The notes below the pieces were generated by a model, which was not told where the DNA came from, did no database searches, and was given only the letters and a program-made list of their open reading frames with translations. From Agromyces atrinae (lineage in GTDB: Bacteria; Actinomycetota; Actinomycetes; Actinomycetales; Microbacteriaceae): 64,000 nt of DNA. The stretch spans positions 2,170,001 through 2,234,000 of the forward strand of contig NZ_JACCBI010000001.1 in the NCBI RefSeq assembly GCF_013407835.1, written 5' to 3'. The number at the start of each line of letters is the position of its first letter. The stretch's first letter is position 1. Position numbers and translations under genes: made by a program. Below are positions 12,207-48,915 of this stretch, in pieces.

Positions 12207-12288
12207 GTGGGGTGGGTGAGGCGAGCGGATGACGGAGTAGCATCGATCGGCCCCGGAACGCCGCGGCCGCGAACGAGGAGCGTGAACC

Positions 12289-13287: not shown

Positions 13288-13303
13288 CCCCCTCACCCCC
13301 CTC

Positions 13304-13431: not shown

Positions 13432-13474
13432 CGTGGGGTGGGGGTGGGGTGGGGCGGGATGACGCGCGCGGGGG

Positions 13475-14392
13475 CTACGCGAAGGCGGGGAGCACCTCGG
13501 CGGCGATGAGCTCGAGGTGGTCGAGGTCGTGCAGGTCCATGATCTGCACGTACAGAGTGTCGACACCGTCGTCGGCGAGACGCCCGATCGTGTCGATGAC
13601 CTGCTGCGGGGTTCCGCCGAGCGAGTTCTCGCGGAACGTCTCGGGCTCGCGGCCGATCGCTCGCACGCGGCGGGCGTACTCCGCGTCATCCGCCCCGACC
13701 GCGGTCGTGAGGGCCGACGAATAGTGGAGCGACTCGGGGTCGCGACCGATCTCGTCGCACGCGGCGCGCACGCGATCGAAGGCGGGCTTCGGGTCGAGCG
13801 TGAAGCCGATGTTGAACTCGCTCGCGAAGCGTGCGGCGACGCGCGGCGTGCGCTTCGGTCCGCCACCGCCGACGACGACGGGCACGGGCGACTGCACGGG
13901 CTTCGGCAGGGCCGGCGAGTCGACGAGCGTGTAGTGCTCGCCCGCGAACGAGTACCGCTCGCCGACAGGCGTCGACCAGAGGCCGGTGATGACCTCGAGC
14001 TGCTCCTCGAGGATGCCGAAGCGCTTCTCGGGGAACGGGATGCCGTACGCCGCGTGCTCCTCGGCGAACCAGCCCGTGCCGAGTCCGAGTTCGGCACGGC
14101 CGCCCGACATCGCATCGACCTGCGCGACCTGGATCGCGAGCAGGCCCGGGTGACGGAACGTCGCCGAGCTCACGAGCGTGCCGAGGCGGATCGTCGACGT
14201 CTCACGCGCGATCGCGCCGAGCGTGACCCACGAGTCGGTCGGGCCGGGCAGCCCGTCGCCCTCGCCCATCGAGAGGAAGTGGTCGGAGCGGAAGAACGCG
14301 TCGAAGCCGAGGCGTTCGGCCGTCTGCGCGACGACGACCTGATCGTCGTAGCTCGCGCCCTGCTGGGGTTCGGTGAAGATCCGGAATCGCAT
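13475..14392 (-). CDS. LLM-class F420-dependent oxidoreductase
   Basis: The 305-residue protein has a luciferase-like TIM barrel. It includes the N-terminal FRIFTEPQQ strand, SDHFLSMG, VSSATFRHPGLLAIQVAQVD and the cofactor-site segment LGLGTGWFAEEHAAYG, all typical of the TIGR03560-like F420 group. It should transfer hydride with coenzyme F420; the substrate is unknown. It sits 12 bases after the methyltransferase stop, in the same minus-strand operon, with no obvious functional link. F420 use is inferred from the family and is common in Actinobacteria. Confidence 0.88.
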   Translation of the reverse strand: MRFRIFTEPQQGASYDDQVVVAQTAERLGFDAFFRSDHFLSMGEGDGLPGPTDSWVTLGAIARETSTIRLGTLVSSATFRHPGLLAIQVAQVDAMSGGRAELGLGTGWFAEEHAAYGIPFPEKRFGILEEQLEVITGLWSTPVGERYSFAGEHYTLVDSPALPKPVQSPVPVVVGGGGPKRTPRVAARFASEFNIGFTLDPKPAFDRVRAACDEIGRDPESLHYSSALTTAVGADDAEYARRVRAIGREPETFRENSLGGTPQQVIDTIGRLADDGVDTLYVQIMDLHDLDHLELIAAEVLPAFA

Positions 14393-28227: not shown

Positions 28228-31107
28228 TCAGCGAGTGCGTTCTTCGAGGAGCTCGAGCACGTGTCGATACTCGGAGCCCGTGGCGCGCGTCATGCCGATC
28301 TCGCACGTGCGATTGCAGGACGCGTGCGCATCGTGCCCGCCGCCCGCGAGTTCCGCCGCCTCGGGCGCCGTCGCCGACGCCGTGAGCTCGGGGTGCAGCA
28401 TGCCGCGGTCGCCCGCGAACCCGCAGCATCCCCACGCGTCGGGCACGTCGACGGTCTCGGCGACGGCGTCGGCGAGCGCGCGCAGGTTGTCGTTCGAGCC
28501 GAGGCGAGTGCTCGCGCACGTGGGGTGCAGCGCGAGCGAGCCCAGACGGTCGGTGACCTGGATGCCCGGCAGCAGGCGCCGCGCGGCGAAGTCGACCGAG
28601 TCCTCGATGCGGAGGTCGACGGGGTCGGCGCCCGTGCGGTTGGCCTGACGGATCGCGAGCACGAGTCCCTCGGTGCACGACGAGTTGTCGGTGACGATCG
28701 TGAGCCGCCCGCGGTCGGACGCGGCGACGAGACTCGCGGCGACGCGCTCGACCATCGTCGCGTAGCCGCCCGCGAGGCCCTTCGACTTCCAGGGCGTTCC
28801 GCAGCAGAGCCCGTCGGCGTTCTCGGGCGTCACGATCGACACTCCGGCCCGTTCGCACAGACGCCGGAACGCCTCGGCCGCGCCGATGCCGTCGCCCGCG
28901 GCGCCGAACATCGATCCGACGCACGCCGCGAAGAGCACGATCGTGTCGTCGGTCGACTCGAGATCCGAAGCCGCGCCAACGCCACCCCGCACCGCGCGCT
29001 TCGGCCCACCACGCGGAAGGTCGCGGCCGTACCGGGGAACGATGTCGCTTCCGAGGAGCGCGCGACCGACATCCGTCGCCGCCGTCACGAGCGGAGCCGG
29101 AGCAGCCTTCGCGATCGTGAGCGCCGTCGCCGCTCCCCGGCTCACGGTCTTCCACTGCTTCGCCGCGATCGCTCCGCCGGCCTTCACGAGCGCAGGCTGC
29201 TCGTTCTCGCGCAGTCGCCGCACGAGGTCGCCGGTGTTGATGAGCACGGGGCACGCCGTCTGGCACATGCCGTCGACGGCGCACGTCTCGACCGAGGCGT
29301 ACTCCTCGGCGCGCGCGAGGTGGGCGTCGAGCCGCGCATCACCCGATGCCTGCGCGGCCGCCCGCGCGCGCCGCACGGCGATGCGTTGCCGCGGAGTGAG
29401 CGTCACGTCGCGGCTCGGGCACACCGGTTCGCAGTATCCGCAGTCGACGCAGCGGTCGACCTCCGACTCGACGGCGGGCGTGAGCTTCAGGTGCGTGAGG
29501 TGCGCCTCGGGGTCGTCGCCGATGAGCACCCCCGGGTTCAGGATGCCGCGGGGATCGCACAACCGCTTGACCTCGCGCATCACTCCGTAGAGTTCTGCAC
29601 CGAACTGGCGCTCGACGAACGGCGCCATGATGCGGCCCGTGCCGTGTTCGGCCTTGAGGGTTCCGCCGCGCGAGAGCACGAGGTCGACGAGGTCTTCGGT
29701 GAAGACGCGCTGCCGCTCGACGCCGCCGGGGCTCGTGAAGTCCTCCGTGAGGAGGAAGTGGATGTTGCCGTCCTTCGCGTGCCCGAAGATCACGGCGTCG
29801 GCGTATCCGTGACGGTCGAAGAGCTGCTGCAGGGCGACGCACGCCTCGGCGAGACTCTCGACCGGCACCGCGATGTCTTCGAGCAGCGCCGTCGTGCCCG
29901 AGGGGCGTGCGCCGGCGATCGCCGCGTAGAGGCCCTTCCGCACGTGCCACAGCTTCGCGCGCTCCCGGGCATCGGTCGTGGGTTCGAAAGCGGGAGCACC
30001 GGCCGCGGCGAGCGCGGCCTGCGCGGCCGCGACGAGGGCGGCGAGCCCCTCGTCATCCGTGCTCTGGTACTCGACGAGCAGCGCGGCGTGATCCTCGATC
30101 ACGAGGTCGTCGACGACGCCCGCCGCCGTGGGGTCGGCCTGCACGACACGCAGCGAACCGGCATCCATCAGCTCGATGGTCGCGGCTCCCGTCTCGACGA
30201 GCAGGGGCAGGATGCCGGTGGCCGAGGCGAGATCGGGGAAGATCACGAGCGCCGTCGCCGCGCGCCGGGCGACGACGATGGTGTCGAACTCGGCGCCGGC
30301 GACGAAACCGAGCGAGCCCTCACTGCCGACGAGCAGGTGCGCGAGCACCTCGACGGGCGTCTCGAAGTCGAGGAACGAGTTGAGGCCGTATCCCATGGTG
30401 TTCTTGCCGCGGTACTGGCGACGGATCTCGGCGACGTGCGCCGGATCGCTGAGGATGCGCTGCCGCAGCAGGAGGAGCCCCGCGTAGAGCTCGGGCTCGG
30501 CGACGGCGAGGCGCTCATCGGCGTCGGCGCGACCCGTATCGATGACCGTGCCGCTCGGCAGCACCGCGGTGAGCGAGCGGAGCGTCTGATAGCTGTTGTG
30601 CACCGTGCCGCACGCCATGCCGCTCGAGTTGTTGGCGATGACGCCGCCGATCGTCGCGGCGCTCTCGCTCGCGGGGTCGGGGCCGAGCTTCCGTCCGTAC
30701 CGGGCGAGGCGGGCGTTCACAGCACGAACGGTCGCGCCGGGCCCGACGCGCACGACGCTGCCGTCGGCGTTCGGTTCGATGTCGCGGAATCCGCGTCGGG
30801 TGTCGAGAAGGATGTCGTCGGCCGAGGCCTGTCCTGAGAGGCTCGTGCCTCCCGAGCGCAGGGTGACGTGGCGCCCCTCGGCATGCGCGAGGCGGAAGAC
30901 CGACACGACGTCCTCGGTCGAGGCGGCGGTGACGACGGCGTTCGGCGTATAGAGGAAGTGCGAGGCGTCGACGGCTGCGACGATACGGTCGAAGGCGTCG
31001 ACGCTCACCGCGTCATCCGTTCGCGGGCCGAGCGCGGTGCGGAGGCGGTCGCCGAACGCCGTGTCCGACGGGGCGACGCCCGCGCGCGAGGCGGTCGCGA
31101 CGCTCAT
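28228..31107 (-). CDS. FAD-linked oxidase / Fe-S oxidoreductase fusion (GlcD-GlcF or D-lactate dehydrogenase type)
   Basis: This 959-residue fusion has an FAD-binding PCMH domain (VTLRSGGTSLSGQA, VHNSYQTLRSL, YGLNSFLD), an FAD-oxidase C domain (GHAKDGNIHFL, KAEHGTGRIMAPF), two 4Fe-4S motifs (CVDCGYCEPVCP, CAVDGMCQTACPV), and a CCG-type quinone/haem-linked domain (GLCCGTPWKSKG, WGCCGFAGDRG). Such proteins oxidise D-lactate, glycolate, D-2-hydroxyglutarate or related 2-hydroxy acids into the respiratory chain. ATG 31107 is used; GTG 31116 is an alternative. It is divergent from the SorC regulator, which may control it. Confidence 0.9.
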   Translation of the reverse strand: MSVATASRAGVAPSDTAFGDRLRTALGPRTDDAVSVDAFDRIVAAVDASHFLYTPNAVVTAASTEDVVSVFRLAHAEGRHVTLRSGGTSLSGQASADDILLDTRRGFRDIEPNADGSVVRVGPGATVRAVNARLARYGRKLGPDPASESAATIGGVIANNSSGMACGTVHNSYQTLRSLTAVLPSGTVIDTGRADADERLAVAEPELYAGLLLLRQRILSDPAHVAEIRRQYRGKNTMGYGLNSFLDFETPVEVLAHLLVGSEGSLGFVAGAEFDTIVVARRAATALVIFPDLASATGILPLLVETGAATIELMDAGSLRVVQADPTAAGVVDDLVIEDHAALLVEYQSTDDEGLAALVAAAQAALAAAGAPAFEPTTDARERAKLWHVRKGLYAAIAGARPSGTTALLEDIAVPVESLAEACVALQQLFDRHGYADAVIFGHAKDGNIHFLLTEDFTSPGGVERQRVFTEDLVDLVLSRGGTLKAEHGTGRIMAPFVERQFGAELYGVMREVKRLCDPRGILNPGVLIGDDPEAHLTHLKLTPAVESEVDRCVDCGYCEPVCPSRDVTLTPRQRIAVRRARAAAQASGDARLDAHLARAEEYASVETCAVDGMCQTACPVLINTGDLVRRLRENEQPALVKAGGAIAAKQWKTVSRGAATALTIAKAAPAPLVTAATDVGRALLGSDIVPRYGRDLPRGGPKRAVRGGVGAASDLESTDDTIVLFAACVGSMFGAAGDGIGAAEAFRRLCERAGVSIVTPENADGLCCGTPWKSKGLAGGYATMVERVAASLVAASDRGRLTIVTDNSSCTEGLVLAIRQANRTGADPVDLRIEDSVDFAARRLLPGIQVTDRLGSLALHPTCASTRLGSNDNLRALADAVAETVDVPDAWGCCGFAGDRGMLHPELTASATAPEAAELAGGGHDAHASCNRTCEIGMTRATGSEYRHVLELLEERTR

Positions 31108-32884: not shown

Positions 32885-33541
32885 TTACAGCGCGGCGACG
32901 AGGTCGCGCAGGCGGGCGACGCCCGAGGCGAGGCTCGAGAGCACGGGCACGCCGGCGTCACCGGTCGCAGCGCTCGCCATCGAGGCCTGAGCGAGCACGA
33001 CGACATCCGATCGCTCGGCGGCCTCGGCGATCGCGGCGGCGACGAGACGGTCGTGCTCGGGGCGGTCTCCCCCGGCGACGGCCGCGAACGCACCCTCGAT
33101 GACGACGCCCTCGATCTCCGGCGAGCGACCCGCGAGCGCGGCGCGCTCACGGATGAGACCCGTCGTCGGTCGGAGCGTCGTCGGCAGGGTCGCGAGCACG
33201 GTGATGCGCTGGCCCGTCGCGACGGCCTCGTCGGCCATGGCCTCGTCGATGCGCAGCACGGGGATTCCGACAGCCTCGGCCGTGGGGGCCGCGAGCTCAG
33301 AGATCGACGAGCACGTGAGCATGAGGGCCGAGGCACCCGCCTCCTTCGCAGCCCGGGCGAGGTCGAGGATGCGCTCGGGCACCGACTCGGCGCGCTCGGC
33401 GTCGGAGAGGTCGGCGACGATGCGGTCGTCGAGGTAGTTGATCGCCGTGACATCCGGGAGGTCGCGCTTGACGAGCTCGCCCACGGGGGCGATGACGACG
33501 GCTCCGGTGTGGAGGAGGGCGACGCGGGGGCTGCCGGTCAT
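32885..33541 (-). CDS. Asp/Glu racemase superfamily protein with a single cysteine
   Basis: The 218-residue protein has the fold signature of the Asp/Glu/hydantoin racemase family (VALLHTGAVVIAPV, ALMLTCSSISELA, VVVLAQASMAS, VPVLSSL). True racemases use two cysteines. Here Cys77 is the only cysteine in the protein, and the second site reads LAQAS. So a racemase is unlikely; a lyase, isomerase or decarboxylase-like activity is possible. It lies eight bases after a CUT1 permease gene, as the last gene of a sugar-uptake operon, suggesting it acts on the imported compound or its breakdown product. Confidence 0.85.
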   Translation of the reverse strand: MTGSPRVALLHTGAVVIAPVGELVKRDLPDVTAINYLDDRIVADLSDAERAESVPERILDLARAAKEAGASALMLTCSSISELAAPTAEAVGIPVLRIDEAMADEAVATGQRITVLATLPTTLRPTTGLIRERAALAGRSPEIEGVVIEGAFAAVAGGDRPEHDRLVAAAIAEAAERSDVVVLAQASMASAATGDAGVPVLSSLASGVARLRDLVAAL

Positions 33542-33549
33542 GGGGGCAC

Positions 33550-34461
33550 CTAGCCTTTCACGGAGCCGGCGGCGAGTCCGGCCATGATCTTCTTGTTGAG
33601 GAAGACGAACACGATGAGCAGCACGATGATGTTGATGCTGATCGCCGCGAAGAGCGGCCCGTACTGCGTCGATCCATACTCGTCGCTCAAGCTCAGCAGT
33701 CCGACCTGGATCGTCGCAAGCTCCGACCGTGTCGTAAACGTGAGGGCGATGAGCAGGTCGTTCCAGACGCTGAAGAACTGCACGAGGCCGACCGTCAGGA
33801 TCGCGTTCTTCATCATGGGCAGGCCGATGATGAAGAAGGAGCGCAGCGGTCCCGAGCCGTCGACCGTCGCGGCCTCGAACATCTCGCGCGGCACCGCACG
33901 GAAGTACGCGGCCATGAGGAACGTCGTGAGGGGGATGCCCATGACGACGTACGTGATGATGAGCGGCCACAGGGTGTCGGTGAGGTTCGCGCGGAAGTAG
34001 ACCGTGAAGAGCGGCACGAGGATCATCTGACCGGGCACCATGATGCCCGCGAGGATGAAGAGGAGCACGCCGTGGCGGCCCTTCCAGATCATGACCTCGA
34101 GCGCGTAACCTGCGGCGACGCCGAGCAGCACGATCGCCGCGACCGACGGAATCGTCACGAGCAGGCTGTTCCAGTAGTTCACGGCGACGTTGCCGCGGGT
34201 GAACGCCTGGATGTAGTTGTCGAAGTTGAGCGCCTCGGGCAGCGCCCACGTCGGGTTCGAGAGGAACTCGGCCTGCGTCTTGAAGGAGCCGAGCACCATC
34301 CACAGCTGCGGGTAGAGCACGACGATGAGCAGGAGCGCGACGAGGATCCACACGGGCAGACGGCGGACGGCGCGCATCACGCGGCGGCCCATCGGCTGAC
34401 GGTTGCGGCGCGGCGGCTGAGGCGTCTCTGTCGCGGTCGGAGAGATCGTGAGGGCGGTCAT
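33550..34461 (-). CDS. CUT1 sugar ABC transporter permease (MalG-like)
   Basis: The 303-residue protein has six spans, an EAA loop (EAATVDGSG) and the MalG-type end KIMAGLAAGSVKG. The ATG at 34461 directly abuts the stop of the preceding permease. A polar Pro/Arg-rich N-terminus of 35 residues precedes the first span. No ATPase is encoded nearby. Confidence 0.93.
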   Translation of the reverse strand: MTALTISPTATETPQPPRRNRQPMGRRVMRAVRRLPVWILVALLLIVVLYPQLWMVLGSFKTQAEFLSNPTWALPEALNFDNYIQAFTRGNVAVNYWNSLLVTIPSVAAIVLLGVAAGYALEVMIWKGRHGVLLFILAGIMVPGQMILVPLFTVYFRANLTDTLWPLIITYVVMGIPLTTFLMAAYFRAVPREMFEAATVDGSGPLRSFFIIGLPMMKNAILTVGLVQFFSVWNDLLIALTFTTRSELATIQVGLLSLSDEYGSTQYGPLFAAISINIIVLLIVFVFLNKKIMAGLAAGSVKG

Positions 34462-34462
34462 G

Positions 34463-35344
34463 TCAGTCCTCCACCTTCGTTCGAGACGATCGGAAGATCG
34501 CGAGAGTGAACACGAGGCACAGCACCGTGAGGATGACGGCGATGGTCGAACCGTAGCCGTACTCGGCGTACTCGAACGCCGTGCGGTACATGTACAGCGT
34601 GAGCGGAGCGGTCTGCGTTCCGGGGCCGCCACCGTTCAGGGCGAGCAGGCTGTCGAACACCTTGAGCGTCGAGTTGAAGCTGAAGATGAGCGACGAGAGC
34701 AGGATCGGCAGCGAGAGCGGGATGACGATGTGGCGCACGAGCTTGAGGCCGTTGGCACCGTCGAGGCGGGCCGACTCGATGACCTCCTCGGGAATGTCGA
34801 GGAGACCGGTGAAGAGCAGGACGGCGTAGAAGCCCATCGAGCCCCACCACGTCATGACGAGCGCGACGGCCATGGTGCCCGCGCCCGAGGCGAGGAACTC
34901 GACGCTGTCGAATCCGAAGAAGTTGATGAGGTCGTTGACGGGGCCCTGATTGGCGCCGACCGAGACGAAGCTCTTGAAGAGGAGTGCGACGGCGACCGTC
35001 GGCAGCACCATGGGGAAGAACACCGCGGTGCGGACGAATGCGGAGCCGCGACGCAGCACGAAGACATAGAGGAGTGCGAGCAGGTAGCCGATGGTGACCT
35101 GGCCGGCCGTCGCGAGGACGGCGAAGACGACGCTCACGCCGACCGACTGGAGGGCGGCTCCATCGTTGAAGAACTTCACGAAGTTGTCGACGCCGACGAA
35201 CTCGAAGCCGCGCAGCGAGTTGCCCTCGAAGAACGAGAGCCCGAGCGACCACGCGACGGGGACGATCTTCAGGAGTACGTAGAGGAGGAGCGCTGGCCCC
35301 AGGAGGATGATGATCGTCTTGCGATCACCGAAGACTGACTTCAT
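34463..35344 (-). CDS. CUT1 sugar ABC transporter permease (MalF-like)
   Basis: The 293-residue protein has six spans, starting with IIILLGPALLLYVLLKIVPV, and the EAA loop ESARLDGAN. It forms a heterodimer with the next permease. A 62-base gap with a strong hairpin separates it from the binding-protein gene. Confidence 0.93.
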   Translation of the reverse strand: MKSVFGDRKTIIILLGPALLLYVLLKIVPVAWSLGLSFFEGNSLRGFEFVGVDNFVKFFNDGAALQSVGVSVVFAVLATAGQVTIGYLLALLYVFVLRRGSAFVRTAVFFPMVLPTVAVALLFKSFVSVGANQGPVNDLINFFGFDSVEFLASGAGTMAVALVMTWWGSMGFYAVLLFTGLLDIPEEVIESARLDGANGLKLVRHIVIPLSLPILLSSLIFSFNSTLKVFDSLLALNGGGPGTQTAPLTLYMYRTAFEYAEYGYGSTIAVILTVLCLVFTLAIFRSSRTKVED

Positions 35345-39836: not shown

Positions 39837-41819
39837 ATGACCACCACGACGACTGCGAGGCCGCACGCGAGTCTCGCGCCGCTCGGCGCCACCGAGGTGC
39901 GCTGGGCGGGAGGCTTCTGGGGCGACACCCTCGAGCGCACCCGCGCGACGACCGTTCCGAGCATCTGGGCGTCGCTCGCCGACCCCGCCGTGAGCCCGGG
40001 ATGGCGGAACTTCCGCATCGCCGCAGGCGAGGAGGAGGGCACGCACGCAGGCCCGCCGTTCCTCGACGGCGACCTGTACAAGTGGCTCGAGGCCGCGATC
40101 AGTCTGCTCGCGACGCAGCCCGATGCGGCCCTCGAGGCCCGCATCGACGAGATCATCGCGCTCCTCGCCTCCATCCAGCGCGAGGACGGCTACCTCCACA
40201 CCGCCGTGCTCATCGACGCGCGCAACGGCGTCCCCGCGAACCCGCTGCAGGACCGCTTCAACTTCGAGACGTACAACCTCGGCCACCTCATCACGGCCGG
40301 TGTGCGCCACTTCCGCGTGACCGGCCGCACCGACCTGCTCGACGTCGCCGAGCGCGCCGCAGGCTTCCTGCAGGGCCTCGCCGACGACCACCCCGTGCAG
40401 CTCGCGGCGAGCGCCATCTGCCCCTCGCACTACATGGGCGTCGTCGACCTCTACCGCGCGACCGGCAACGAATCGTACCTGCGTCTCTCGGAGGCGTTCC
40501 TGCGGGTGCGCGACGAGTTCGACGGCGGAGACGACAACCAGGACCGCATCCCCGTGCGCGAGCAGCGCGTCGCCGCGGGCCACGCCGTGCGCGCCAACTA
40601 CCTCTACGCGGGCCTCGCCGACCTCGTCGCCGAGACGGGCGACGCCGAACTCGGTGCCGTGCTCGGCGGCCTGTGGGACGACGTCGTCGACACGAAGCTC
40701 TACCTCACGGGCGGCTGCGGCGCCCTCTACGACGGAGCCTCCCCCGACGGATACCCCTGGCAGGGCGAGCTCAGCCGCGTGCACCAGGCCTACGGCCGTG
40801 CGTACCAGCTGCCCAACACGACCGCCCACAACGAGACGTGCGCGAACATCGGCATGATCCTCTGGAGCGAGCGCATGCTCGCGCTCACGGGCGACGCGAA
40901 GTACGCCGACGTCATCGAGCGCATCGCGTTCAACAGCTTCCTGTCGGGCATCGACCTCGACGGCGACGCGTACTTCTACACGAACCCGCTCCGTCAGGTG
41001 CGCGACCTCCCCTACCCCCTGCGTATGCCGGGCGAGACAGCCCTCGATCCCGTGCCCGCTCCGCCGCCCTCCGACGAGCGCCTCCGCACCGAGTACCTCT
41101 CGGTCTTCTGCTGCCCGCCGAACGTCGCGCGCACGCTCGCGCAGTTCCACGAGCGCGCGATGGCCGTCACCGAGGGAACGCTCTGGGTGCACCAGTACGG
41201 CAGCGCCGAGGCATCCGTCGATCTCGGCGCAGGCCGAACGCTCCGGGTGCGCGAGACGACCGACTACCCGTGGGACGAGACGATCGCGTTCGAGGTCCTC
41301 GAAGCGACGGGCGTCGCGGCGATCCGTCTGCGCATCCCGGGCTGGAGCTCGGGCGCGACCATCACGGTCAACGGCGAGCCCGTCGAGGTCTCGGAGCCCG
41401 GCACGTACACGTCGGTCGAGCGGGAGTGGAGCGCGGGCGACCGCCTCAACCTCACCCTGCCGATGCCGGTACGGATGCTCCGTGCGAACCGTCTCGCCGA
41501 AGAGGTGACGAACCAGGTCGCCCTGCAGCGCGGACCCCTCGTCTACGCCCTCGAGAGCCACGACGCCCCGGGTGCGGCCCTCGAGAACATCGCGCTCCGC
41601 CGCGGCACCGCCTTCTCGCCCGTCGACATCGAACAGGGCGGCCGCCGCCTCGTCGCGATCGACGCCGAGGCGGTCGTGCTGCCGGATGCCGGTGACGACC
41701 TCTACTCCGACATCGACGACGCTGCCGTGCAGACGACCCCCATCCGACTCATCCCCTACTTCGCGTGGGGCAACCGTGGAGCCTCGGAGATGTCCGTGTG
41801 GCTTCCCGTGGTCTGGTGA
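39837..41819 (+). CDS. GH127 beta-L-arabinofuranosidase-like glycosidase
   Basis: The 660-residue protein has the GH127 (formerly DUF1680) signatures. It keeps the zinc/nucleophile set: Glu333 and Cys335 in HNETCANIG, and Cys425-Cys426 in SVFCCPPN. These correspond to the metal ligands and nucleophilic cysteine of characterised enzymes. It also has FNFETYNLGH and SHYMGVVDLYR. GH127 members remove beta-L-arabinofuranose from hydroxyproline-linked or pectic chains; some relatives act on other furanosides such as apiose-containing ones. No signal peptide. GAAGGAG precedes ATG 39837. Confidence 0.93.
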   Translation: MTTTTTARPHASLAPLGATEVRWAGGFWGDTLERTRATTVPSIWASLADPAVSPGWRNFRIAAGEEEGTHAGPPFLDGDLYKWLEAAISLLATQPDAALEARIDEIIALLASIQREDGYLHTAVLIDARNGVPANPLQDRFNFETYNLGHLITAGVRHFRVTGRTDLLDVAERAAGFLQGLADDHPVQLAASAICPSHYMGVVDLYRATGNESYLRLSEAFLRVRDEFDGGDDNQDRIPVREQRVAAGHAVRANYLYAGLADLVAETGDAELGAVLGGLWDDVVDTKLYLTGGCGALYDGASPDGYPWQGELSRVHQAYGRAYQLPNTTAHNETCANIGMILWSERMLALTGDAKYADVIERIAFNSFLSGIDLDGDAYFYTNPLRQVRDLPYPLRMPGETALDPVPAPPPSDERLRTEYLSVFCCPPNVARTLAQFHERAMAVTEGTLWVHQYGSAEASVDLGAGRTLRVRETTDYPWDETIAFEVLEATGVAAIRLRIPGWSSGATITVNGEPVEVSEPGTYTSVEREWSAGDRLNLTLPMPVRMLRANRLAEEVTNQVALQRGPLVYALESHDAPGAALENIALRRGTAFSPVDIEQGGRRLVAIDAEAVVLPDAGDDLYSDIDDAAVQTTPIRLIPYFAWGNRGASEMSVWLPVVW

Positions 41820-41824: not shown

Positions 41825-43084
41825 ATGACGACTCCCTCCTACGTCACAGCGACGTACATCGTCGAGAGCCAACTCGACATCCACGCCGCCGCCGAGGTGC
41901 TCGCGGGCGAGCAGTCGACGGGCACGTTCGTGCGCGTCGCGCGCGAGTCCGACGAGCTGCGCGAGCGGTCGGCGGCGCGCATCGTGAGCATCGAGGAACT
42001 CGCGCCGTCGGGCCTCTCGCCGCTGCCCGGTGCGCTCGGCGACCCCGCGCTGTTGAAGCGCGCGCGCATCATGCTGCGCTTCCCGCTCGCGAACTTCGGG
42101 CCGTCGCTGCCGAACCTGCTCGCGGCCGTCGCCGGCAACCTCTTCGAACTCAAGGAGTTCGCGGCGGTCAAGCTCGTCGACCTCGACCTTCCGTACGAGT
42201 TCGCCGAGCGCTACCCCGGCCCCGCGTTCGGCGTCGAGGGCACGCGTCGCCTCATGTCGCGGCCCACGGGCGCCATGGTCGGCACGATCGTCAAGCCGAG
42301 CATCGGACTCTCGCCCGCAGAGCTCGCGGAGCTCGTCGGCGAGCTCGTCGAGGCCGGCATCGACTTCATCAAGGATGACGAGCTGCAGGCCAACGGCCCC
42401 GGAGCGCCCCTCGCCGAACGCGTGCGCGCGGTCATGCCCGTCATCGAGCGCTACGCCGACAAGACCGGCCGGAAGCCGATGTACGCTTTCAACATCACCG
42501 ACGACATCGGCCGCCTCGAGGCCAACCACGACCTCGTCGTCGGTGCGGGAGGCACGTGCGTCATGGCGTGCATCAACATGGTCGGCCTCGCGGGTGTCGA
42601 GTTCCTCCGCCGCCACTCGACCGTGCCGATCCACGGCCACCGCGCGATGTTCGGAGCGATCAGTCGCTCGTCGCAGGTCGGCTTCACGTTCCGCGCGTGG
42701 CAGAAGCTCGCCCGCCTGTCGGGCGTCGACCACCTCCACACCAACGGCATCTCGAACAAGTTCTACGAGAGCGACGCCGAGGTGCTCGACTCGATCGCCG
42801 CCGTGCGTGAACCGCTGCTCGGGCTCGGCACGACCGTGCCCGTGCTGTCGTCGGGCCAGTGGGCGGGGCTCGCGCACGCGACGTACAACGAGATCCACAC
42901 GACCGACGTGCTCGTGCTCGCCGGCGGCGGCATCCACGGTCACCCCGACGGGTCGGCCGCGGGAGTTCGCAGCATGCGCGACGCGTGGGAATCGGCTGCG
43001 GCCGGCGACTCGCTCGCGACGGCCGAAGACCGCTCACCGGCGCTCCGCCGCGCGATCGAGACCTTCGGACCGGCGCGTGTCTGA
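41825..43084 (+). CDS. RuBisCO-like protein (form IV; possible sugar-acid decarboxylase or transcarboxylase)
   Basis: The 419-residue protein is RuBisCO large-subunit-like. It keeps Lys157 (TIVKPSIGLS), the metal-binding KDDE (183-186, the carbamylated-lysine region), GHRAM (His272) and SSGQWAG. The N-terminal domain is short. True RuBisCO loop-6 features are not evident, so carbon fixation is unlikely. Related RuBisCO-like proteins decarboxylate or split 3-oxo-isoapionate 4-phosphate after phosphorylation by a DUF1537 kinase, and such a kinase gene overlaps here by eight bases. It starts at ATG 41825, five bases after the GH127 stop, with no clear ribosome site, so it probably relies on coupling. 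Confidence 0.9.
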   Translation: MTTPSYVTATYIVESQLDIHAAAEVLAGEQSTGTFVRVARESDELRERSAARIVSIEELAPSGLSPLPGALGDPALLKRARIMLRFPLANFGPSLPNLLAAVAGNLFELKEFAAVKLVDLDLPYEFAERYPGPAFGVEGTRRLMSRPTGAMVGTIVKPSIGLSPAELAELVGELVEAGIDFIKDDELQANGPGAPLAERVRAVMPVIERYADKTGRKPMYAFNITDDIGRLEANHDLVVGAGGTCVMACINMVGLAGVEFLRRHSTVPIHGHRAMFGAISRSSQVGFTFRAWQKLARLSGVDHLHTNGISNKFYESDAEVLDSIAAVREPLLGLGTTVPVLSSGQWAGLAHATYNEIHTTDVLVLAGGGIHGHPDGSAAGVRSMRDAWESAAAGDSLATAEDRSPALRRAIETFGPARV

Positions 43085-44399
43085 CGTTTACGTCCCCGAC
43101 CTCAGGGTCGGGTTCTACGGCGACGACTTCACGGGAAGCGTCGACGTGCTGCTGCAATTCGCCCGCGCGGGCTGGAGCAGTCGCCTGTTCGTGACGCTTC
43201 CGCCTGCCGAGGTGCTCGCCGACGCGGCATCCGGTGTCGACGCCGTGGGGGTCGCGGGAATCGCGCGCTCGCTCGCGCCCGACGACCTCGACGCCGAGGT
43301 ACGGCCCGTGCTCGAGGCGCTGCGCGATCTCGGGCCCGCCGTCGTGCAGTACAAGGCGTGCTCGACGGCCGACTCGTCGCCGACCGTCGGCAGCCTGGGG
43401 CGCGTCATCGACATCGCCGGAGACGTGTTCGCGCGCGCCACCGTGCCCGTCGCGTTCGCGCAACCCGACTTCGGACGCTTCACGGCCTTCGGCCACCACT
43501 TCGCCGCCGAGGGCGGCACCGTGCACCGCCTCGACCGCCAGCCGACGATGGCGAACCACCCGTCGACGCCCATGACCGAGTCGGACCTCGCGCGGCACCT
43601 GTCGGCGCAGACCGCGCAGCCCGTCGGTGCGGTGCACCTCACCGAGTACACGGATGCCGCGGGCGTGGCCCACGCGATGACCGAGCGTTCGGCCGCGGCC
43701 GTCGTGCTCGACGCCCTCGACGACGCTCATCTCGAGCTCGTCGCTCGCGCGTCGCTCGAACTGTCGGGATCGGGCCCCGTCTTCGCGATCGGCTCCGGCG
43801 GCTTCAGCACCGGCTTCGCCCGCGCGCTCGGAGGTCGGGCCGGAGAGGTCGCCCTCGAGGTGCGCCCCGGCGGCGGCCCCGTGCTCGTCGTCTCGGGCAG
43901 TCGTTCACCCCAGACCGCGCGGCAGATCGATCACGTGCGCGGGTTGGGCTGGGAGGTGCTGTCGCTGCCGCTCGGTTCGAGTGTGGGCGCTCCTGGTGCC
44001 GCGGTCCCGGGTTCCGAGTCGCCGGCCGCCGTCATCCTGCCCGCCGTGCGCGAGGCTCTCGCCGCGGGACGCAGCGTCGTCGTCTCGACGGCCGATGCGG
44101 TCGCCGTCGATCGGGCCACCCTCGTCGAGGAGATCGCCGCGTCGCTCACCGAGATCGTGTCGGCAGTCGCCCACGACGGGCTCAGCTCTCGCGTCATCGT
44201 GTGCGGCGGAGACACGTCGAGCCGCCTCGTTCGTGCGATCGGCGCGGAATCGCTGCGCCTCGTCGCCAATCCATTCGGCAACGTCGTGATGTGCGCCCTC
44301 TCGTCGGACGACCCCGCGATCGACGGCCTCGAGATCGTGTTGAAGGGCGGACAGGTCGGCCCCGTCGACCTCTTCGAGACCGTCCACGCTCTCGGCTGA
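43077..44399 (+). CDS. DUF1537 (four-carbon acid sugar kinase family) protein
   Basis: The 440-residue kinase has the N-terminal substrate domain signature VGFYGDDFTGSVDVL, KACSTADSSPTVGSLG and FGRFTAFGHHF. The C-terminal nucleotide-binding domain has SGSRSPQTARQI, CGGDTSSRL and VLKGGQVG. The family phosphorylates 3- or 4-carbon acid sugars (erythronate, threonate, tetronates) and 3-oxo-isoapionate. It starts at GTG 43077 inside the RuBisCO-like gene. Pairing with that gene favours a 3-oxo-isoapionate-like substrate (inferred). Last gene of the operon; long repeats follow. Confidence 0.92.
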   Translation: MSDVYVPDLRVGFYGDDFTGSVDVLLQFARAGWSSRLFVTLPPAEVLADAASGVDAVGVAGIARSLAPDDLDAEVRPVLEALRDLGPAVVQYKACSTADSSPTVGSLGRVIDIAGDVFARATVPVAFAQPDFGRFTAFGHHFAAEGGTVHRLDRQPTMANHPSTPMTESDLARHLSAQTAQPVGAVHLTEYTDAAGVAHAMTERSAAAVVLDALDDAHLELVARASLELSGSGPVFAIGSGGFSTGFARALGGRAGEVALEVRPGGGPVLVVSGSRSPQTARQIDHVRGLGWEVLSLPLGSSVGAPGAAVPGSESPAAVILPAVREALAAGRSVVVSTADAVAVDRATLVEEIAASLTEIVSAVAHDGLSSRVIVCGGDTSSRLVRAIGAESLRLVANPFGNVVMCALSSDDPAIDGLEIVLKGGQVGPVDLFETVHALG

Positions 44400-44983: not shown

Positions 44984-47968
44984 TCAGACTCGGAAGCGCA
45001 GCGTCCAGCTCGTGGTCTCGCGGGGCACGCGGTAGCGGTCGGGCAGGGCCGGGCCGCACGAGGCCGAGCCGAGGCCCTGCTGACGCGCGTCGAGGTTGAG
45101 CCACACGCGTCCGGAGTCGCGGAGGTCGATGGGGCGTCGCGCGCGTTCGAGGTCCTGCGACGTCCACCGACGCACCGTGAAGTCGAACTCGTCGCCGTCG
45201 ACCGTGAGCGTCGGCAGCCCGTCGCCCGCGAGCGCGAGTGTGCGCGTGCCGACGTGGTTGCCGTTCTCCTGCGGCACCGGATACGGCGTCTGCAGGCCGT
45301 CGATCGACGCGGCGAAGCGGCCGAAGCGCGCGGCATCCCGCGAGTCGACGTACGACTCCTCGGGCCCGAAGCCGAGCCAGTCGACCTCGCGGTACGCGCC
45401 CGGCAGGGCGAGGCGCAGGCCCATGCGCGGCGGCAGGATGTCGCGCTGCATGTACGGCGTCTCGGTCCACGGTCCGACGAACTCGACCGTCGTCGTGAGC
45501 GAGACCTCGTCGGCCGAGGCGCTCCAGTCGAACGTGTACCGCACACCGTGCGGGTGCGTTGCGGGCGCCGATCGCCCGGTCACTCGCACGCCGAAATCGC
45601 CGAACTCGACCGAGTCGGTGCGGTGCTGCATGCGCTCGAGACCGACGGCCTGCCAGACGGCGGCGACGTTGTTGTTCGAGCCCTGGCCGCGGTCGTTCTC
45701 GGTCGGCGCCCGGTAGAGGTCGACCTCGGGCCCGTCGACGGCGACACCGCCGAGGCTCACGAGCCGACCCGATTCGGCGTCGAACTCCGCGGCACCGAGT
45801 GTGATGCGGTCGCCCGAGCGCGCGGCGCCGATGCGCGGCGCCACTGACGCTGCGACGCGCGACCCCGCGATGACGCCCTGCCCGAACGTGACCTCGTGGC
45901 CGGCATCCGCCCACGACGTCTCGGCCGCGAGGCGCGCGACGACGGTGAGCCACACCTCGCCGGCGGATACGGCGAGGCCGGCTGAACCGGCGACTCCGCC
46001 GGAAACCGCCGGCACCGAAACCGCCGGCACCGACACCGCCGGCACCGCGACCCGCACCGACTCGCCCGCAGCGACCGCAGGAACGTCGAGCACACCGCGC
46101 GCGACTTCCTCCCCCGACACCTCGGCGACCCAGTCGAACGCGAAGGCCTCAAGCCCCGCGACGTGCTGCTTGTTCGTGATCTCGATGTCGTCGCCCACGA
46201 CGATCGAGACGGGCTCCAGCGCCTTCTTCAACTCAGCGAGTCCGGGCGAGGGCGAGCGGTCAGAGAACACGAGCCCGTCGAGGCAATAGCGGCCGCCGTT
46301 GGGTCGGTATGCGACATCCCCGCCGTGCATGAAGAACTCGCGCCCGTCGTCGGTGTGCGCGCGGAAGCCGTGGTCGATCCACTCCCACACGAACGCACCG
46401 CAGAAGCGGTCGTAGCGCTCGAGGATGCGCTGGTAGTCGGCGAGCGATCCCGGGCCATTGCCCATCGCGTGCGCGTACTCGCAGAGGAGGAACGGCAGGG
46501 TGCGGCGACGTGCGTCCTCGTCATCCGTCACGCCCTCGGGGCGCGGATCGTCGCGCTGCCCGATCTGCTCGAGCAATTCTTGCGTCGGGTACATGAGCGA
46601 CGCGAAGTCGGAGTTCTTGTAGCTCGGGTCGCGCTCGTAGTGGATGGGTCGCGACGGGTCGCGGTCGCGGATCCACCGTTCGAGCTCGCCGAACGCGTCG
46701 CCCGTCCAGCTCTCGTTGGCGAGCGACCAGACGACGACGCTCGGCCGGTTCTTGTCGCGTTCGACCATGCGCCGCGTGCGGTCGAGCAGGGCGTCGCTCC
46801 ACTCGGGCGTCGCGGGCGGGTTGCCCTCCCACCCGGCGTAGATGAAGCCGTGCGTCTCGAGGTCGCCTTCTTCGACGACCCACAGGCCGTACTCGTCGCA
46901 GAGGCGCAGGAACTCGGGGTGCGGCGGGTAGTGACTGGTGCGCACCGCGTTGACGTTCGCCTGCTTCATCATGCGGATGTCGCGGATCATCGTCTCGCGG
47001 CTGAGAGTGCGGCCCGTGTCGGGGTCGTGCTCGTGCCGGTTGACGCCGCGGAAGAACACCTTCCGCCCGTTGACGGTGAGCACGCCGTCGACGATCGCGA
47101 CCGTACGGAAGCCGATCGACAGCTCGACGATCTCGCCCGCCGATTCGAGCGTTCCCCGGTAGAGACGCGGCTGCTCGGCCGACCACGGTTCGACCGGGAT
47201 GACGGCCGTCGACCCCGCGGGCATCTCGATGCCGAGCTCGGGAACACGCACGGTCGCGGCGACGTCGGCGGTCACGGTGAGAGTGCCCTCGCCGGTGACG
47301 TGGTCGTAGTCGGCGACGACGTGGTGGTCGTCGATCGAGCCCGCCGGGCGCTCGAGCAGCTCGACGTCGCGGAAGATGCCGGGCAGCCACCACATGTCCT
47401 GGTCTTCGACGTAGGTGCCGCTCGACCAGCGGTGCACGCGCACGAGCAGCACGTTCTCACCGGCGACGACGGGGGCATCGAACTCGAACGGCAGGCGGCT
47501 GCCCGTCGCGTAACCGAGCTCGCGGCCGTTGAGCCACACCTTCGCGGCCGAGTCGACGCCCTGGAAACGCAGTACCGCGGGGCCGAAGTCGGCGGGCACG
47601 TCGAAGACGAGTCGGTGGTCGCCCGTCGGGTTCTCGGTCGGCACGCGCGGGGGATCGATCGGGATCGGCAGCGCGGTGTTCGTGTAGAGCGGGCCTTCGT
47701 CGCTGCCGCGGAGCGACCGGGCCGGGCCACCCGCGAGCGGCGTGACGTCTTCGAGCACCCAGTGCGCGGGAACGCGCAGCGCGTCCCACGCGGAGTCGTC
47801 GAAACCGGGCGAGGAGATCTCGGCGCCGTCGCCCGCTCCCGCCGCGGTCGGGGCGAGCCGGAACCGCCACGTACCGCCGAGGTCGAGGCGGCGTGCGTTC
47901 GAGAGCGCGTCGGCGCGCGGAGCGCGGCGTCCGGCGCCGGGCGCGGTGGATTCCCAGTAGTTCGTCAC
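44984..47968 (-). CDS. GH2 beta-galactosidase (LacZ-type)
   Basis: This 994-residue protein has the five-domain LacZ layout: sugar-binding jelly roll (WENPTGDHR-like block), immunoglobulin-like domain, TIM barrel and C-terminal small-chain domain. Catalytic residues are visible: Glu419 in SLANESW and Glu497 in LLCEYAHAMGN, plus FVWEWIDHGF. A low-complexity VPAVSVPAVS stretch links the barrel to the C-terminal domains. GTG 47968, preceded by AGGGA, gives the usual N-terminus. The longer frame is a shadow of the aldo/keto reductase gene. Likely substrates are beta-galactosides from plant polymers. It is cytoplasmic, with no signal peptide. Confidence 0.93.
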   Translation of the reverse strand: MTNYWESTAPGAGRRAPRADALSNARRLDLGGTWRFRLAPTAAGAGDGAEISSPGFDDSAWDALRVPAHWVLEDVTPLAGGPARSLRGSDEGPLYTNTALPIPIDPPRVPTENPTGDHRLVFDVPADFGPAVLRFQGVDSAAKVWLNGRELGYATGSRLPFEFDAPVVAGENVLLVRVHRWSSGTYVEDQDMWWLPGIFRDVELLERPAGSIDDHHVVADYDHVTGEGTLTVTADVAATVRVPELGIEMPAGSTAVIPVEPWSAEQPRLYRGTLESAGEIVELSIGFRTVAIVDGVLTVNGRKVFFRGVNRHEHDPDTGRTLSRETMIRDIRMMKQANVNAVRTSHYPPHPEFLRLCDEYGLWVVEEGDLETHGFIYAGWEGNPPATPEWSDALLDRTRRMVERDKNRPSVVVWSLANESWTGDAFGELERWIRDRDPSRPIHYERDPSYKNSDFASLMYPTQELLEQIGQRDDPRPEGVTDDEDARRRTLPFLLCEYAHAMGNGPGSLADYQRILERYDRFCGAFVWEWIDHGFRAHTDDGREFFMHGGDVAYRPNGGRYCLDGLVFSDRSPSPGLAELKKALEPVSIVVGDDIEITNKQHVAGLEAFAFDWVAEVSGEEVARGVLDVPAVAAGESVRVAVPAVSVPAVSVPAVSGGVAGSAGLAVSAGEVWLTVVARLAAETSWADAGHEVTFGQGVIAGSRVAASVAPRIGAARSGDRITLGAAEFDAESGRLVSLGGVAVDGPEVDLYRAPTENDRGQGSNNNVAAVWQAVGLERMQHRTDSVEFGDFGVRVTGRSAPATHPHGVRYTFDWSASADEVSLTTTVEFVGPWTETPYMQRDILPPRMGLRLALPGAYREVDWLGFGPEESYVDSRDAARFGRFAASIDGLQTPYPVPQENGNHVGTRTLALAGDGLPTLTVDGDEFDFTVRRWTSQDLERARRPIDLRDSGRVWLNLDARQQGLGSASCGPALPDRYRVPRETTSWTLRFRV

Positions 47969-47979: not shown

Positions 47980-48915
47980 TCAGTCGACGACGGTGGAGGG
48001 CGCGGGGCCGAGGTTCTCGAGGTCGCTCCAGAACGTCTCGGGCACGACGGCGACCCGGCGTTCCTCGAGCTGGGCGATGCGCGCGGTCGACGAGATGCCG
48101 ACGACGGTCGAGTCGATGAGCGGCGAGCGCAGCGAGAAGTGCAGTGCGGCGGTCGGCAGGTCGATGCCGTGGCGCGCGCACAATGCCTCGACGCGTTCGA
48201 CCCACGCGATGAGCGCGGGGGTCGACGGTGTGTAGGCGTAGGTTCCGCCCGAGGCCGAACCGCGTGCGAGCAGACTGCCGCCGAACGGCGCGGCGTTGAA
48301 GGTGCCCATGCCGCGCTCACGCGCGTCGTCGAGCAGCGCCCGTGCGCTCTGGTCGACGATCGTGAACCGGTTGTGGGTGAGCACGGCGTCGAAGAGCCCC
48401 GAGGCGACGTAGCGCGAGACGACGCTCACACGACCGGCCGCGATGCCGATCGCGTCGACGAGACCCTGCTCCTTGAGTTCGAGCATGCCGGCGACGGCAC
48501 CACCCGGGGCCATCGCCTCCTCGAACGTGATCGTGTACGGGTCGTGCAGGTGCAGCAGACCGATGCGGTCGACGCCGAGACGTGCGGTGCTCTCCTCGAA
48601 CGAACGCCACACGCGGTCACGGTCGAAGACGCCCGTCGCGGGGTCACGGTCGGTCTTCGTGACGATCGGGCGCGGGTCGGCGACCGCACGCCGGGCGAGC
48701 CCGAGCACCGCTTCGCTGCGACCCTCGGAGTACATGTTCGATGTGTCGACGACCGCGTACGGACCGCTCAGCATCGCTGTCGCGAGCTCGACGGCCGCGG
48801 CCTCCTCGGCGCTTCCGGGCTCGGTGCCCTGGCCGAGGCCCGAGGTACCGAGTGTGAGCGGGCTGACCTCGATGCCGGTCGCGCCGAGCGTGCGCGGGTC
48901 GATAGGTGTCGTCAT
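47980..48915 (-). CDS. Aldo/keto reductase (sugar dehydrogenase-like)
   Basis: The 311-residue (beta/alpha)8 enzyme has the AKR catalytic tetrad: Asp57 and Tyr62 (VDTSNMYSEGRSE), Lys87 (VTKTDR) and a His in LLHLHDPY. The sequence style is close to D-threo-aldose / L-fucose / L-galactose 1-dehydrogenases. It would oxidise or reduce a free sugar released by the flanking beta-galactosidases. It overlaps the GH42 stop by ATGA and is followed after 11 bases by the GH2 gene, so the three form one operon. Confidence 0.88.
   Translation of the reverse strand: MTTPIDPRTLGATGIEVSPLTLGTSGLGQGTEPGSAEEAAAVELATAMLSGPYAVVDTSNMYSEGRSEAVLGLARRAVADPRPIVTKTDRDPATGVFDRDRVWRSFEESTARLGVDRIGLLHLHDPYTITFEEAMAPGGAVAGMLELKEQGLVDAIGIAAGRVSVVSRYVASGLFDAVLTHNRFTIVDQSARALLDDARERGMGTFNAAPFGGSLLARGSASGGTYAYTPSTPALIAWVERVEALCARHGIDLPTAALHFSLRSPLIDSTVVGISSTARIAQLEERRVAVVPETFWSDLENLGPAPSTVVD

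What the first reader, a model, noticed from the sequence alone, without database searches (positions are those of the whole stretch)
41825..44399. RuBisCO-like protein and DUF1537 kinase inside a rhamnosidase/arabinofuranosidase operon
The sequence shows an operon of GH78, GH127, a form-IV RuBisCO-like protein with intact KDDE and KPS motifs, and an overlapping DUF1537 kinase. Known biology: RuBisCO-like enzymes and DUF1537 kinases act in sequence in D-apionate breakdown (3-oxo-isoapionate kinase, then decarboxylase or transcarboxylase). Apiose, rhamnose and L-arabinofuranose occur together in rhamnogalacturonan II and flavonoid glycosides. Inference: this operon strips a plant glycoside and then degrades a branched or acidic sugar by a kinase/RuBisCO-like step. 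The dehydrogenase and lactonase steps expected for apiose are not in the operon, so the true substrate may be new.
Basis: partly seen in the sequence, partly recalled or inferred. Interest (0 to 1): 0.75.

Follow-up and report, generated by a model that had tools for sequence, protein, structure and literature searches.

The report
Likely aceric acid degradation gene cluster
An actinobacterium carries a conserved gene set, including a relative of the carbon-fixing enzyme RuBisCO, that looks built to break down aceric acid, a rare branched sugar of plant pectin for which I found no described degradation route.

Summary
GH78 (37021-39807), GH127 (39837-41819), a form-IV RuBisCO-like protein (RLP, 41825-43084) and a DUF1537 kinase (43077-44399) form one operon. 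The RLP is neither MtnW nor OiaX: it lies outside both clades and below both curated cut-offs, and keeps RuBisCO residues that OiaX lost, so it resembles the OiaT (transcarboxylase/hydrolase) side of the apionate enzymes.

The key clue is the GH127. It matches PDB 5MQO (recalled as BT1003, an aceric acid hydrolase) far better than arabinofuranosidases, and 58 of 58 linked GH127s share 5MQO's altered active site. RLP, kinase, this GH127 and an Asp/Glu-racemase-fold protein (32885-33541) recur together (57 of 81 loci). A separate apionate-like cluster in the genome disfavours apiose.

Best explanation: release of aceric acid from pectin RG-II side chain B, isomerisation by the racemase-fold protein, 1-phosphorylation, RLP cleavage. 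Substrate, isomerase and products are inferred. The predicted L-lactate does not match the D-lactate-type flavoenzyme nearby, which is not specific to these genomes.

The parts
41825..43084 (+). RuBisCO-like protein (419 aa), form IV, outside the MtnW and OiaX clades
   Evidence: PF00016; NCBIfam OiaX 414 bits against a cut-off of 700; tree; residues
43077..44399 (+). DUF1537 acid-sugar kinase, OiaK-like (440 aa, GTG start)
   Evidence: PF07005/PF17042; OiaK 265.5 bits against a cut-off of 700; E<=1e-30 in 8 of 150 relatives, each of which also has an RLP hit
39837..41819 (+). GH127 of the 5MQO type, proposed aceric acid hydrolase (660 aa; GTG 39804 also possible)
   Evidence: PF07944; 5MQO 617.7 bits, HypBA1 248.1 bits; active-site residues
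37021..39807 (+). GH78 alpha-L-rhamnosidase
   Evidence: PF17389 and companions
32885..33541 (-). Asp/Glu-racemase-fold protein (218 aa), proposed aldose-ketose isomerase of aceric acid
   Evidence: PF01177 69.8 bits; in 62 of 81 RLP loci; model pLDDT 95.8 and fold matches
33550..34632 (-). ABC sugar permease (start may be 34392)
   Evidence: PF00528; gene call
34463..35344 (-). ABC sugar permease
   Evidence: PF00528
35407..36726 (-). ABC solute-binding protein
   Evidence: PF01547
31315..32292 (+). SorC/DeoR-type sugar-binding regulator
   Evidence: PF04198; in 39 of 81 RLP loci
28228..31107 (-). FAD/4Fe-4S 2-hydroxyacid dehydrogenase (GlcD/YdiJ-like); only loosely tied to the module
   Evidence: PF02913, PF01565 and Fe-S domains; 28 of 81 RLP loci but also 47 of 150 relatives
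44984..47968 (-). GH2 beta-galactosidase, could remove the galactose that caps aceric acid in side chain B
   Evidence: PF02836 and PF02929; in 38 of 81 RLP loci; nearest PDB 6etz
47980..48915 (-). aldo/keto reductase
   Evidence: PF00248
48912..51059 (-). GH42 beta-galactosidase
   Evidence: PF02449

Best explanation
The operon and its divergent partner genes take up and break down an aceric-acid-containing fragment of rhamnogalacturonan-II side chain B. Steps: (1) ABC import of the oligosaccharide; (2) GH78 and GH2 trim it and the 5MQO-type GH127 releases aceric acid (3-C-carboxy-5-deoxy-L-xylose); (3) the racemase-fold protein converts this aldose to its 2-ketose; (4) the DUF1537 kinase phosphorylates O-1, giving 3-oxo-isoapionate-4-phosphate with CH(OH)CH3 in place of one CH2OH, a close mimic of RuBisCO's six-carbon intermediate; (5) the RLP works like OiaT: it moves the carboxyl to the neighbouring carbon, hydrates and cleaves, giving 3-phosphoglycerate and lactate. 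Shown here: gene identities, conserved linkage, GH127 subtype, RLP clade and residues. Inferred: substrate, every reaction, and the products.
For: GH127: 5MQO 617.7 bits against 368.9, 303.5 and 248 for the next structures. In 58 of 58 linked GH127 rows, as in 5MQO, HypBA1 E322 is Gln, H142 is Phe and H194 is Cys, while the Zn/Cys residues are kept (H142 and H194 counted on the chain printed). H142 and H194 are named as HypBA1 substrate-site residues in PMC10850190 (passages). BT1003 is called an aceric acid hydrolase in PMC10850190 and PMC5698469 (passages). Linkage: racemase-fold gene and GH127 together in 57 of 81 RLP loci, in 9 named families of which 2 records look misnamed. Among 150 relatives, own genome included, RLP at >=65% identity, this GH127 at E<=1e-100 and the racemase-fold gene at >=59% identity occur in the same 5 genomes; the kinase at E<=1e-30 is in 8, each with an RLP. 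RLP: keeps Glu60, Asn123 and His327 equivalents that 2 of 2 OiaX lost, and Arg295 and Lys334 that 3 of 3 MtnW lost. Separate apionate-like, rhamnose and arabinose genes in the genome. In 4 of 6 fetched contexts, racemase-fold paralogues (42-47% identity) sit beside an FGGY kinase and a DeoC/LacD aldolase. In B. theta chain B loses Araf, Rha and MeFuc, then Gal by a GH2 (PMC12282258 passages).
Against: That 5MQO is BT1003 is recalled; no held paper mentions 5MQO. The FAD/FeS enzyme occurs in 47 of 150 relatives and twice in the own genome, and a 70% identical copy lies in a MurNAc-6-phosphate etherase cluster, pointing to D-lactate, whereas aceric acid should give L-lactate. Kribbella/Streptomyces RLP loci carry an alcohol dehydrogenase instead of the racemase-fold gene. 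Only 3 independent evolutionary pairs differ in the racemase-fold gene, too few for a significant test. Of six fetched contexts of racemase-fold paralogues, G101 shows no sugar kinase or aldolase (by eye) and G045 has a different set. The genome also has a xylose isomerase that could do the isomerisation. I recall no sugar isomerase in that superfamily. Leucobacter L090 and others have the racemase-fold gene without this GH127 (5 of 62).
Confidence: 0.5

Rival explanations
1. Apiose route: the RLP and kinase are an OiaT/OiaK pair acting on 3-oxo-isoapionate, with the missing oxidation steps encoded elsewhere in the genome.
For: NCBIfam's best models are OiaX and OiaK. An ApnO-like gene exists in the genome. 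GH140/apiosidase-like genes lie in 14 of 81 RLP loci. JGI names one 78% identical protein OiaT (P0064). A GlcD-type flavoenzyme would fit a glycolate product (L096).
Against: Both models fall far below cut-off (414 and 265.5 bits against 700). The ApnO-like gene lies in its own cluster with a TIM-barrel protein, Dak kinase, TPI-like and RpiB-like genes, which by recall of Carter 2018 is the RLP-free OiaC/LerK/LerI/DerI route. ApnO-like hits are in only 4 of 88 RLP loci. Nothing in this reading needs the 5MQO-type GH127 or the racemase-fold protein.
Confidence: 0.18
2. Same aceric acid substrate, but the RLP is a plain decarboxylase (OiaX-like) giving a 5-deoxy-pentulose 1-phosphate that an aldolase elsewhere splits into DHAP and acetaldehyde.
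For: The OiaX model is the best NCBIfam hit. Class II aldolases are present in the genome, three PF00596 hits.
Against: OiaX proteins over the cut-off form a distant clade and have lost Glu60, Asn123 and His327 equivalents that this RLP keeps. Among the neighbour clusters that I annotated the only aldolase was RhaD (10 of 88 loci by tblastn); small clusters were not annotated.
Confidence: 0.12
3. The module degrades another, unknown 2-C-carboxylated aldose released by GH127 from a plant or microbial glycan other than RG-II.
For: GH127 substrates are varied: a Zobellia carrageenan gene cluster holds GH127s (PMC5698469 passage). The GH78, GH2 and GH42 here are not RG-II-specific by sequence.
Against: The altered active site is shared with 5MQO specifically. 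Aceric acid is the only natural glycosidic sugar of this kind that I recall. Apiosidase-like genes accompany 14 of 81 loci; GH28 and sialidase-fold genes accompany mainly the Kribbella, Streptomyces and Occultella loci.
Confidence: 0.2

Closest known systems
D-apionate pathway RLPs OiaT and OiaX with kinase OiaK (Carter et al. 2018, not held; mentioned in PMC6302742, passages seen)
   Same: RLP plus overlapping DUF1537 kinase; RLP retains the non-OiaX residue set
   Different: Separate clade from OiaX, below the OiaX/OiaK cut-offs, coupled to a glycosidase and a racemase-fold protein, rarely to ApnO
BT1003-type GH127 aceric acid hydrolase of Bacteroides thetaiotaomicron (5MQO, recalled)
   Same: Best match among solved structures and the same active-site replacements
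   Different: In actinobacteria, in one operon with sugar-catabolism genes; no signal peptide seen by eye in the window sequence
Asp/Glu/hydantoin racemase superfamily, including arylmalonate decarboxylase
   Same: Fold and PF01177; first active-site Cys (C77) invariant in 62 of 62 rows
   Different: Second Cys position reads Gln (Q185, invariant in 62 of 62; placed by my reading of the motif), so the two-Cys mechanism is not available; genomic company is sugar kinases
MtnW, 2,3-diketo-5-methylthiopentyl-1-phosphate enolase
   Same: RuBisCO-superfamily fold by homology
   Different: Distinct clade; R295, H327 and K334 equivalents differ in 3 of 3

Membership tests
OiaX (3-oxo-isoapionate-4-phosphate decarboxylase) | NCBIfam NF042437 score at or above 700 bits | tested here: not met
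   414 bits; two proteins over the cut-off scored 787 and 783
OiaX (3-oxo-isoapionate-4-phosphate decarboxylase) | Same clade and same active-site letters as members over the cut-off | tested here: not met
   Separate clade; E60, N123, H327 equivalents kept here, D/G/Q in 2 of 2 OiaX
OiaT (transcarboxylase/hydrolase) | Retention of RuBisCO-type catalytic residues in the apionate RLP group | tested here: inconclusive
   Residues kept, but no verified OiaT sequence was available and ApnO-linked RLPs fall in other clades
OiaT (transcarboxylase/hydrolase) | Activity on 3-oxo-isoapionate-4-phosphate | not testable with these tools
   Needs enzyme assay
OiaK (3-oxo-isoapionate kinase) | NCBIfam NF042436 score at or above 700 bits | tested here: not met
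   265.5 bits
MtnW | TIGR03332 score at or above 513.6 bits and MtnW clade | tested here: not met
   158.6 bits; three MtnW over the cut-off form their own clade
Bona fide RuBisCO (forms I-III) | Complete catalytic residue set including Lys177 | tested here: not met
   Lys177 equivalent is Ser159
BT1003-type GH127 | Closest to 5MQO, with E322Q, H142F and H194C relative to HypBA1 | tested here: met
   identity of 5MQO as BT1003 recalled
BT1003-type GH127 | Release of aceric acid | not testable with these tools
   Needs enzyme assay on RG-II chain B
HypBA1-type beta-L-arabinofuranosidase | Glu322, His142, His194 | tested here: not met
   Q328, F154, C206 in the window protein (numbered from GTG 39804)
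Asp/Glu racemase | Racemase fold | tested here: met
   Foldseek E 4.7e-09 to 3ojc; PF01177
Asp/Glu racemase | Two catalytic cysteines | tested here: not met
   C77 invariant; the second position, by my reading of the motif, is Q185 in 62 of 62

The most novel reading that the evidence does not exclude
This is a complete bacterial pathway for aceric acid: an Asp/Glu-racemase-fold protein acts as a new kind of aldose-ketose isomerase, a DUF1537 kinase makes a natural analogue of RuBisCO's six-carbon intermediate, and a RuBisCO-like protein performs transcarboxylation and hydrolysis on it to give 3-phosphoglycerate and lactate.
Probability: 0.3. Interest if true: 0.87.

Novelty: new variant of a known kind. 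Interest (0 to 1): 0.72.

Why it matters
Aceric acid is a component of RG-II (PMC12168206 passages), a pectin domain said to be conserved across plants (its abstract). In the held literature I found the hydrolase that releases it, but the listings (20 of 11,790, 30 of 61 and 10 of 5,161 papers shown) name no route for its use. If the module does this, it closes a gap in pectin carbon turnover, adds a reaction to the RuBisCO superfamily that runs on a stable mimic of RuBisCO's own carboxylated intermediate, and assigns a sugar-isomerase role to part of the racemase superfamily. Because the genes are few and recur together (57 of 81 loci), the question can be tested directly.

Tried and rejected
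MtnW/methionine salvage: rejected by score and tree. OiaX: rejected by cut-off, tree and residues. Apiose as substrate: disfavoured. GH127 as ordinary beta-L-arabinofuranosidase: rejected by active-site letters. FAD/FeS enzyme as a module-specific partner proving a lactate product: weakened after the relatives search and the MurNAc cluster. A phylogenetically corrected test of co-occurrence had only 3-4 independent pairs on supported branches and is not significant, so the locus counts are not independent events. The near-exclusivity of racemase-fold gene and ApnO has an exception (L083) and also lacks power. Hamamelose/hamamelonate as a known RLP substrate: searched, no relevant paper listed (40 of 170 shown, 5 of 5). 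5MQO by name: no paper.

Alignment A1 held one wrong-strand row (L004) and was replaced by A2. Alignment A3 held a wrong stretch and was not used. The first gene caller dropped the kinase and was replaced; six low-GC loci were called again. One search was an empty script.
Full report
WHAT IS THERE. The window lies at G000:C1:2170001-2234000 of a 3.65 Mb genome with one RuBisCO-family gene. The genus is probably Agromyces: same-genus genome G051 holds its RLP on a 15,200-base contig, the length of the contig behind L050, a record titled Agromyces sp. MAG; this is inference. On the + strand GH78 (37021-39807), GH127 (39837-41819), RLP (41825-43084) and DUF1537 kinase (43077-44399) follow each other with gaps of 29 and 5 bases and an 8-base overlap. 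On the opposite strand upstream lie a solute-binding protein and two permeases, then a 218-aa Asp/Glu-racemase-fold protein (32885-33541); further up lie a SorC-type regulator (+ strand) and a FAD/4Fe-4S 2-hydroxyacid dehydrogenase. Downstream lie GH2, aldo/keto reductase, GH42, LacI, a nucleoside-hydrolase-like gene and two more GH78. L-rhamnose isomerase starts about at the window's end and RhaD lies beyond it.

CONSERVED MODULE. One scan of genome contigs with a profile of the RLP found 186 relatives, of which the best 80 were kept. In these 80 loci plus the window the kinase is present in 80 of 81, the racemase-fold gene in 62, this GH127 in 59, both of the last two in 57, SorC in 39, GH78 in 39, GH2 in 38 and the FAD/FeS enzyme in 28. 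Loci cut short by contig ends count as misses. The racemase-fold gene lies at a median 5.3 kb from the RLP, within 300 bp in 4 of 62, mostly across the divergent transporter genes; in Jiangella (for example L076, L083) and Microlunatus the order is RLP, kinase, GH127, racemase-fold gene on one strand. Among 150 relatives, own genome included, an RLP hit of any kind occurs in 10. The 5 with >=65% identity are exactly the 5 with this GH127 at E<=1e-100 and exactly the 5 with the racemase-fold gene at >=59% identity; 17 more genomes hold weaker racemase-fold hits (<=48%). The kinase at E<=1e-30 occurs in 8 genomes: these 5 plus 3 that hold RLPs of 47-50% identity. In G103 the RLP and GH127 lie on different contigs. 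These counts are not independent: on the RLP tree (47 rows scored) only 3 supported independent pairs differ in the racemase-fold gene, and the glycosidase (GH127 or its remote relative) goes the same way in about 2 of 3.

THE RLP. By NCBIfam it scores 414 bits for OiaX (cut-off 700), 239 for form III RuBisCO (cut-off 497) and 159 for MtnW (cut-off 514). In a 66-row tree (LG+G4) it lies in a 24-row GH127/racemase clade (98/85), away from the three MtnW over the cut-off (100/100) and from the two OiaX over the cut-off (100/100), which sit in another clade with plasmid-borne and ApnO-linked RLPs. Long branches were flagged for some rows. The Paenibacillus RLPs that have a racemase-fold gene beside a remote GH127 relative lie in a third place. 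Mapped to RuBisCO (spinach numbers recalled; 2cwx alignment, its N-terminus not aligned, so Glu60 and Thr65 are placed by motif), the clade keeps Glu60, Thr65, Asn123, Lys175, Lys201, Asp203, Glu204, His294, Arg295, His327 and Lys334 and has Ser for Lys177 (22 of 22 rows, 21 for the first two because one row has a gap there). The Ser379 column looks one off and is not used. OiaX (2 of 2) has Asp, Gly and Gln at 60, 123 and 327. ApnO-linked RLPs (5 of 5) and 12 of 12 other rows keep the set (Lys177 varies: Ser or Asn), so it marks the non-OiaX side of the family, which by literature includes a transcarboxylase/hydrolase (PMC6302742, passages; that its products are 3-phosphoglycerate and glycolate is recalled).

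THE GH127. Against solved structures the best hit is 5MQO at 617.7 bits; 4QJY, 6EX6 and HypBA1 follow at 368.9, 303.5 and 248.1. In 58 of 58 linked GH127 rows (window included; kept if the blast score was above 300 and the gene call longer than 520 residues) and in 5MQO the residue at HypBA1 Glu322 is Gln, at His142 Phe and at His194 Cys. 4QJY, 6EX6 and HypBA1 have Glu and His at the first two sites; at the third 4QJY and HypBA1 have His and 6EX6 Val. The Glu/Cys zinc ligands are kept in 58 of 58. PMC10850190 lists R273, H194, H142 and Y145 as the HypBA1 substrate site and BT1003 as an aceric acid hydrolase among arabinofuranosidases (passages); PMC5698469 says the same of BT1003 (passage). 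That 5MQO is BT1003 and Glu322 the acid/base are recalled. A Gln at that site would make sense if aceric acid's own carboxyl helps catalysis (inference).

WHY ACERIC ACID. The substrate must carry a tertiary carboxyl next to a ketone for RLP chemistry. Aceric acid has the carboxyl already; a single aldose-ketose isomerisation and a 1-phosphorylation give a homologue of 3-oxo-isoapionate-4-phosphate. Apiose would need a dehydrogenase, a lactonase and ApnO (recalled pathway). ApnO-like hits occur in 4 of 88 RLP loci (80 genome-contig loci, 7 plasmid loci, the window); L015 has one just outside its stretch, and L119, not among the 88, has one too. The own genome has an ApnO-like gene (PF16896, 206.6 bits; 45% identical to the one beside an annotated oiaK) in a cluster with a TIM-barrel protein, TPI-like, RpiB-like and Dak kinase genes, which I recall as the RLP-free apionate route. 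NCBIfam does not prove this: the ApnO-like and TIM-barrel proteins have no hit at E<=1e-15, the RpiB-like one passes the ribose-5-phosphate isomerase cut-off (198 bits against 168.2) and not that of DerI (132 against 240), and the TPI-like one passes none shown. Rhamnose genes and arabinose genes (by eye) are also present. In B. theta chain B digestion a GH2 removes the galactose exposed after MeFuc (PMC12282258 passages); that this galactose sits on aceric acid is recalled.

THE RACEMASE-FOLD PROTEIN. AlphaFold gives pLDDT 95.8; Foldseek matches Asp/Glu, hydantoin and allantoin racemases and arylmalonate decarboxylase. Cys77 and Gln185 are invariant in 62 of 62 rows; the second racemase Cys is missing. 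I fetched six contexts of weaker relatives. In four (G080, G060, G024, G082; 42-47% identity) the gene sits beside an FGGY kinase and a DeoC/LacD aldolase; Pfam was run on the L128 set, the other three were judged by sequence likeness. In G045 (40%) it sits beside a DUF1537 kinase, an SMP-30-like gene and an HpaI-type aldolase; in G101 (39%) no such neighbours were seen. No other aldose isomerase was recognised by eye next to the four, though L129 has a SIS-domain gene about 5 kb away. Isomerase, kinase, aldolase is the classic order, so an isomerase role is the simplest reading; it is untested, and the genome's xylose isomerase is an alternative.

WHAT DOES NOT FIT. The FAD/FeS enzyme is widespread (47 of 150) and the own genome has a second copy (59% identity). 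A 70% identical copy in a same-genus genome lies in a MurNAc-6-phosphate etherase/AnmK cluster, so D-lactate is its likely substrate, while aceric acid C4 would give L-lactate. Either it serves something else, or the scheme needs a change. Kribbella and Streptomyces loci (8 of 88 with alcohol dehydrogenase and a remote GH127-like protein) have no racemase-fold gene. Aquibacillus L096 has only a 29% identical racemase-like neighbour with TRAP-transporter-like and GlcD/GlcF-like genes (partly by eye), suggesting relatives of this pathway for free acid sugars.

LITERATURE. Searches (40 of 170 shown; 2 of 2; 5 of 5; 4 of 4; 20 of 11,790; 30 of 61; 0; 10 of 5,161) of the held library list no paper that by title or start of abstract describes aceric acid catabolism or an RLP acting on it. 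Carter 2018, Ndeh 2017 and Zhang 2016 are not held. Other papers were seen as passages only.

VERDICT. I file the locus as a new variant of the DUF1537-kinase/RLP pathways.

Noticed in passing
L094:7554-9218 (+), L013:6999-8720 (-), 13 RLP loci in all: A ~570-aa family, of which one member has no Pfam hit and another no PDB hit, carries HETC and CC motifs and is a remote GH127 relative (hhalign 79.6%, E 1.5e-5). It replaces GH127 beside the racemase-fold gene in Paenibacillus and beside an alcohol dehydrogenase in Kribbella/Streptomyces.
   Followed up: partly
L128, L129, L131, L132: Racemase-fold paralogues sit in DeoR-like / FGGY kinase / DeoC-LacD aldolase clusters, with an alpha-amylase-fold gene (L128) or a metallo-beta-lactamase-fold gene (L129), a sugar pathway I do not recognise.
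   Followed up: partly
L104 (G000:C1:1688000-1706000), 9545-14259: The own genome carries an ApnO-like, TIM-barrel, TPI-like, RpiB-like and Dak kinase cluster that looks like an RLP-free apionate route.
   Followed up: partly
L133 (G017) and L134 (G035): A 70% identical FAD/FeS 2-hydroxyacid dehydrogenase lies in a MurNAc-6-phosphate etherase / AnmK recycling cluster (names tested for L133 only), suggesting a D-lactate dehydrogenase.
   Followed up: partly
L060 (record titled Planococcus sp. APC 4015): The locus RLP is 73% identical to the window RLP and the locus is laid out like Microbacterium loci, so the record may be misnamed or contaminated.
   Followed up: no
L013, L068, L069, L070, L072, L075, L078, L081, L082, L088, L089: RLP/kinase pairs with an alcohol dehydrogenase family gene nearby and no racemase-fold gene; what the dehydrogenase does is unexplained.
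   Followed up: no
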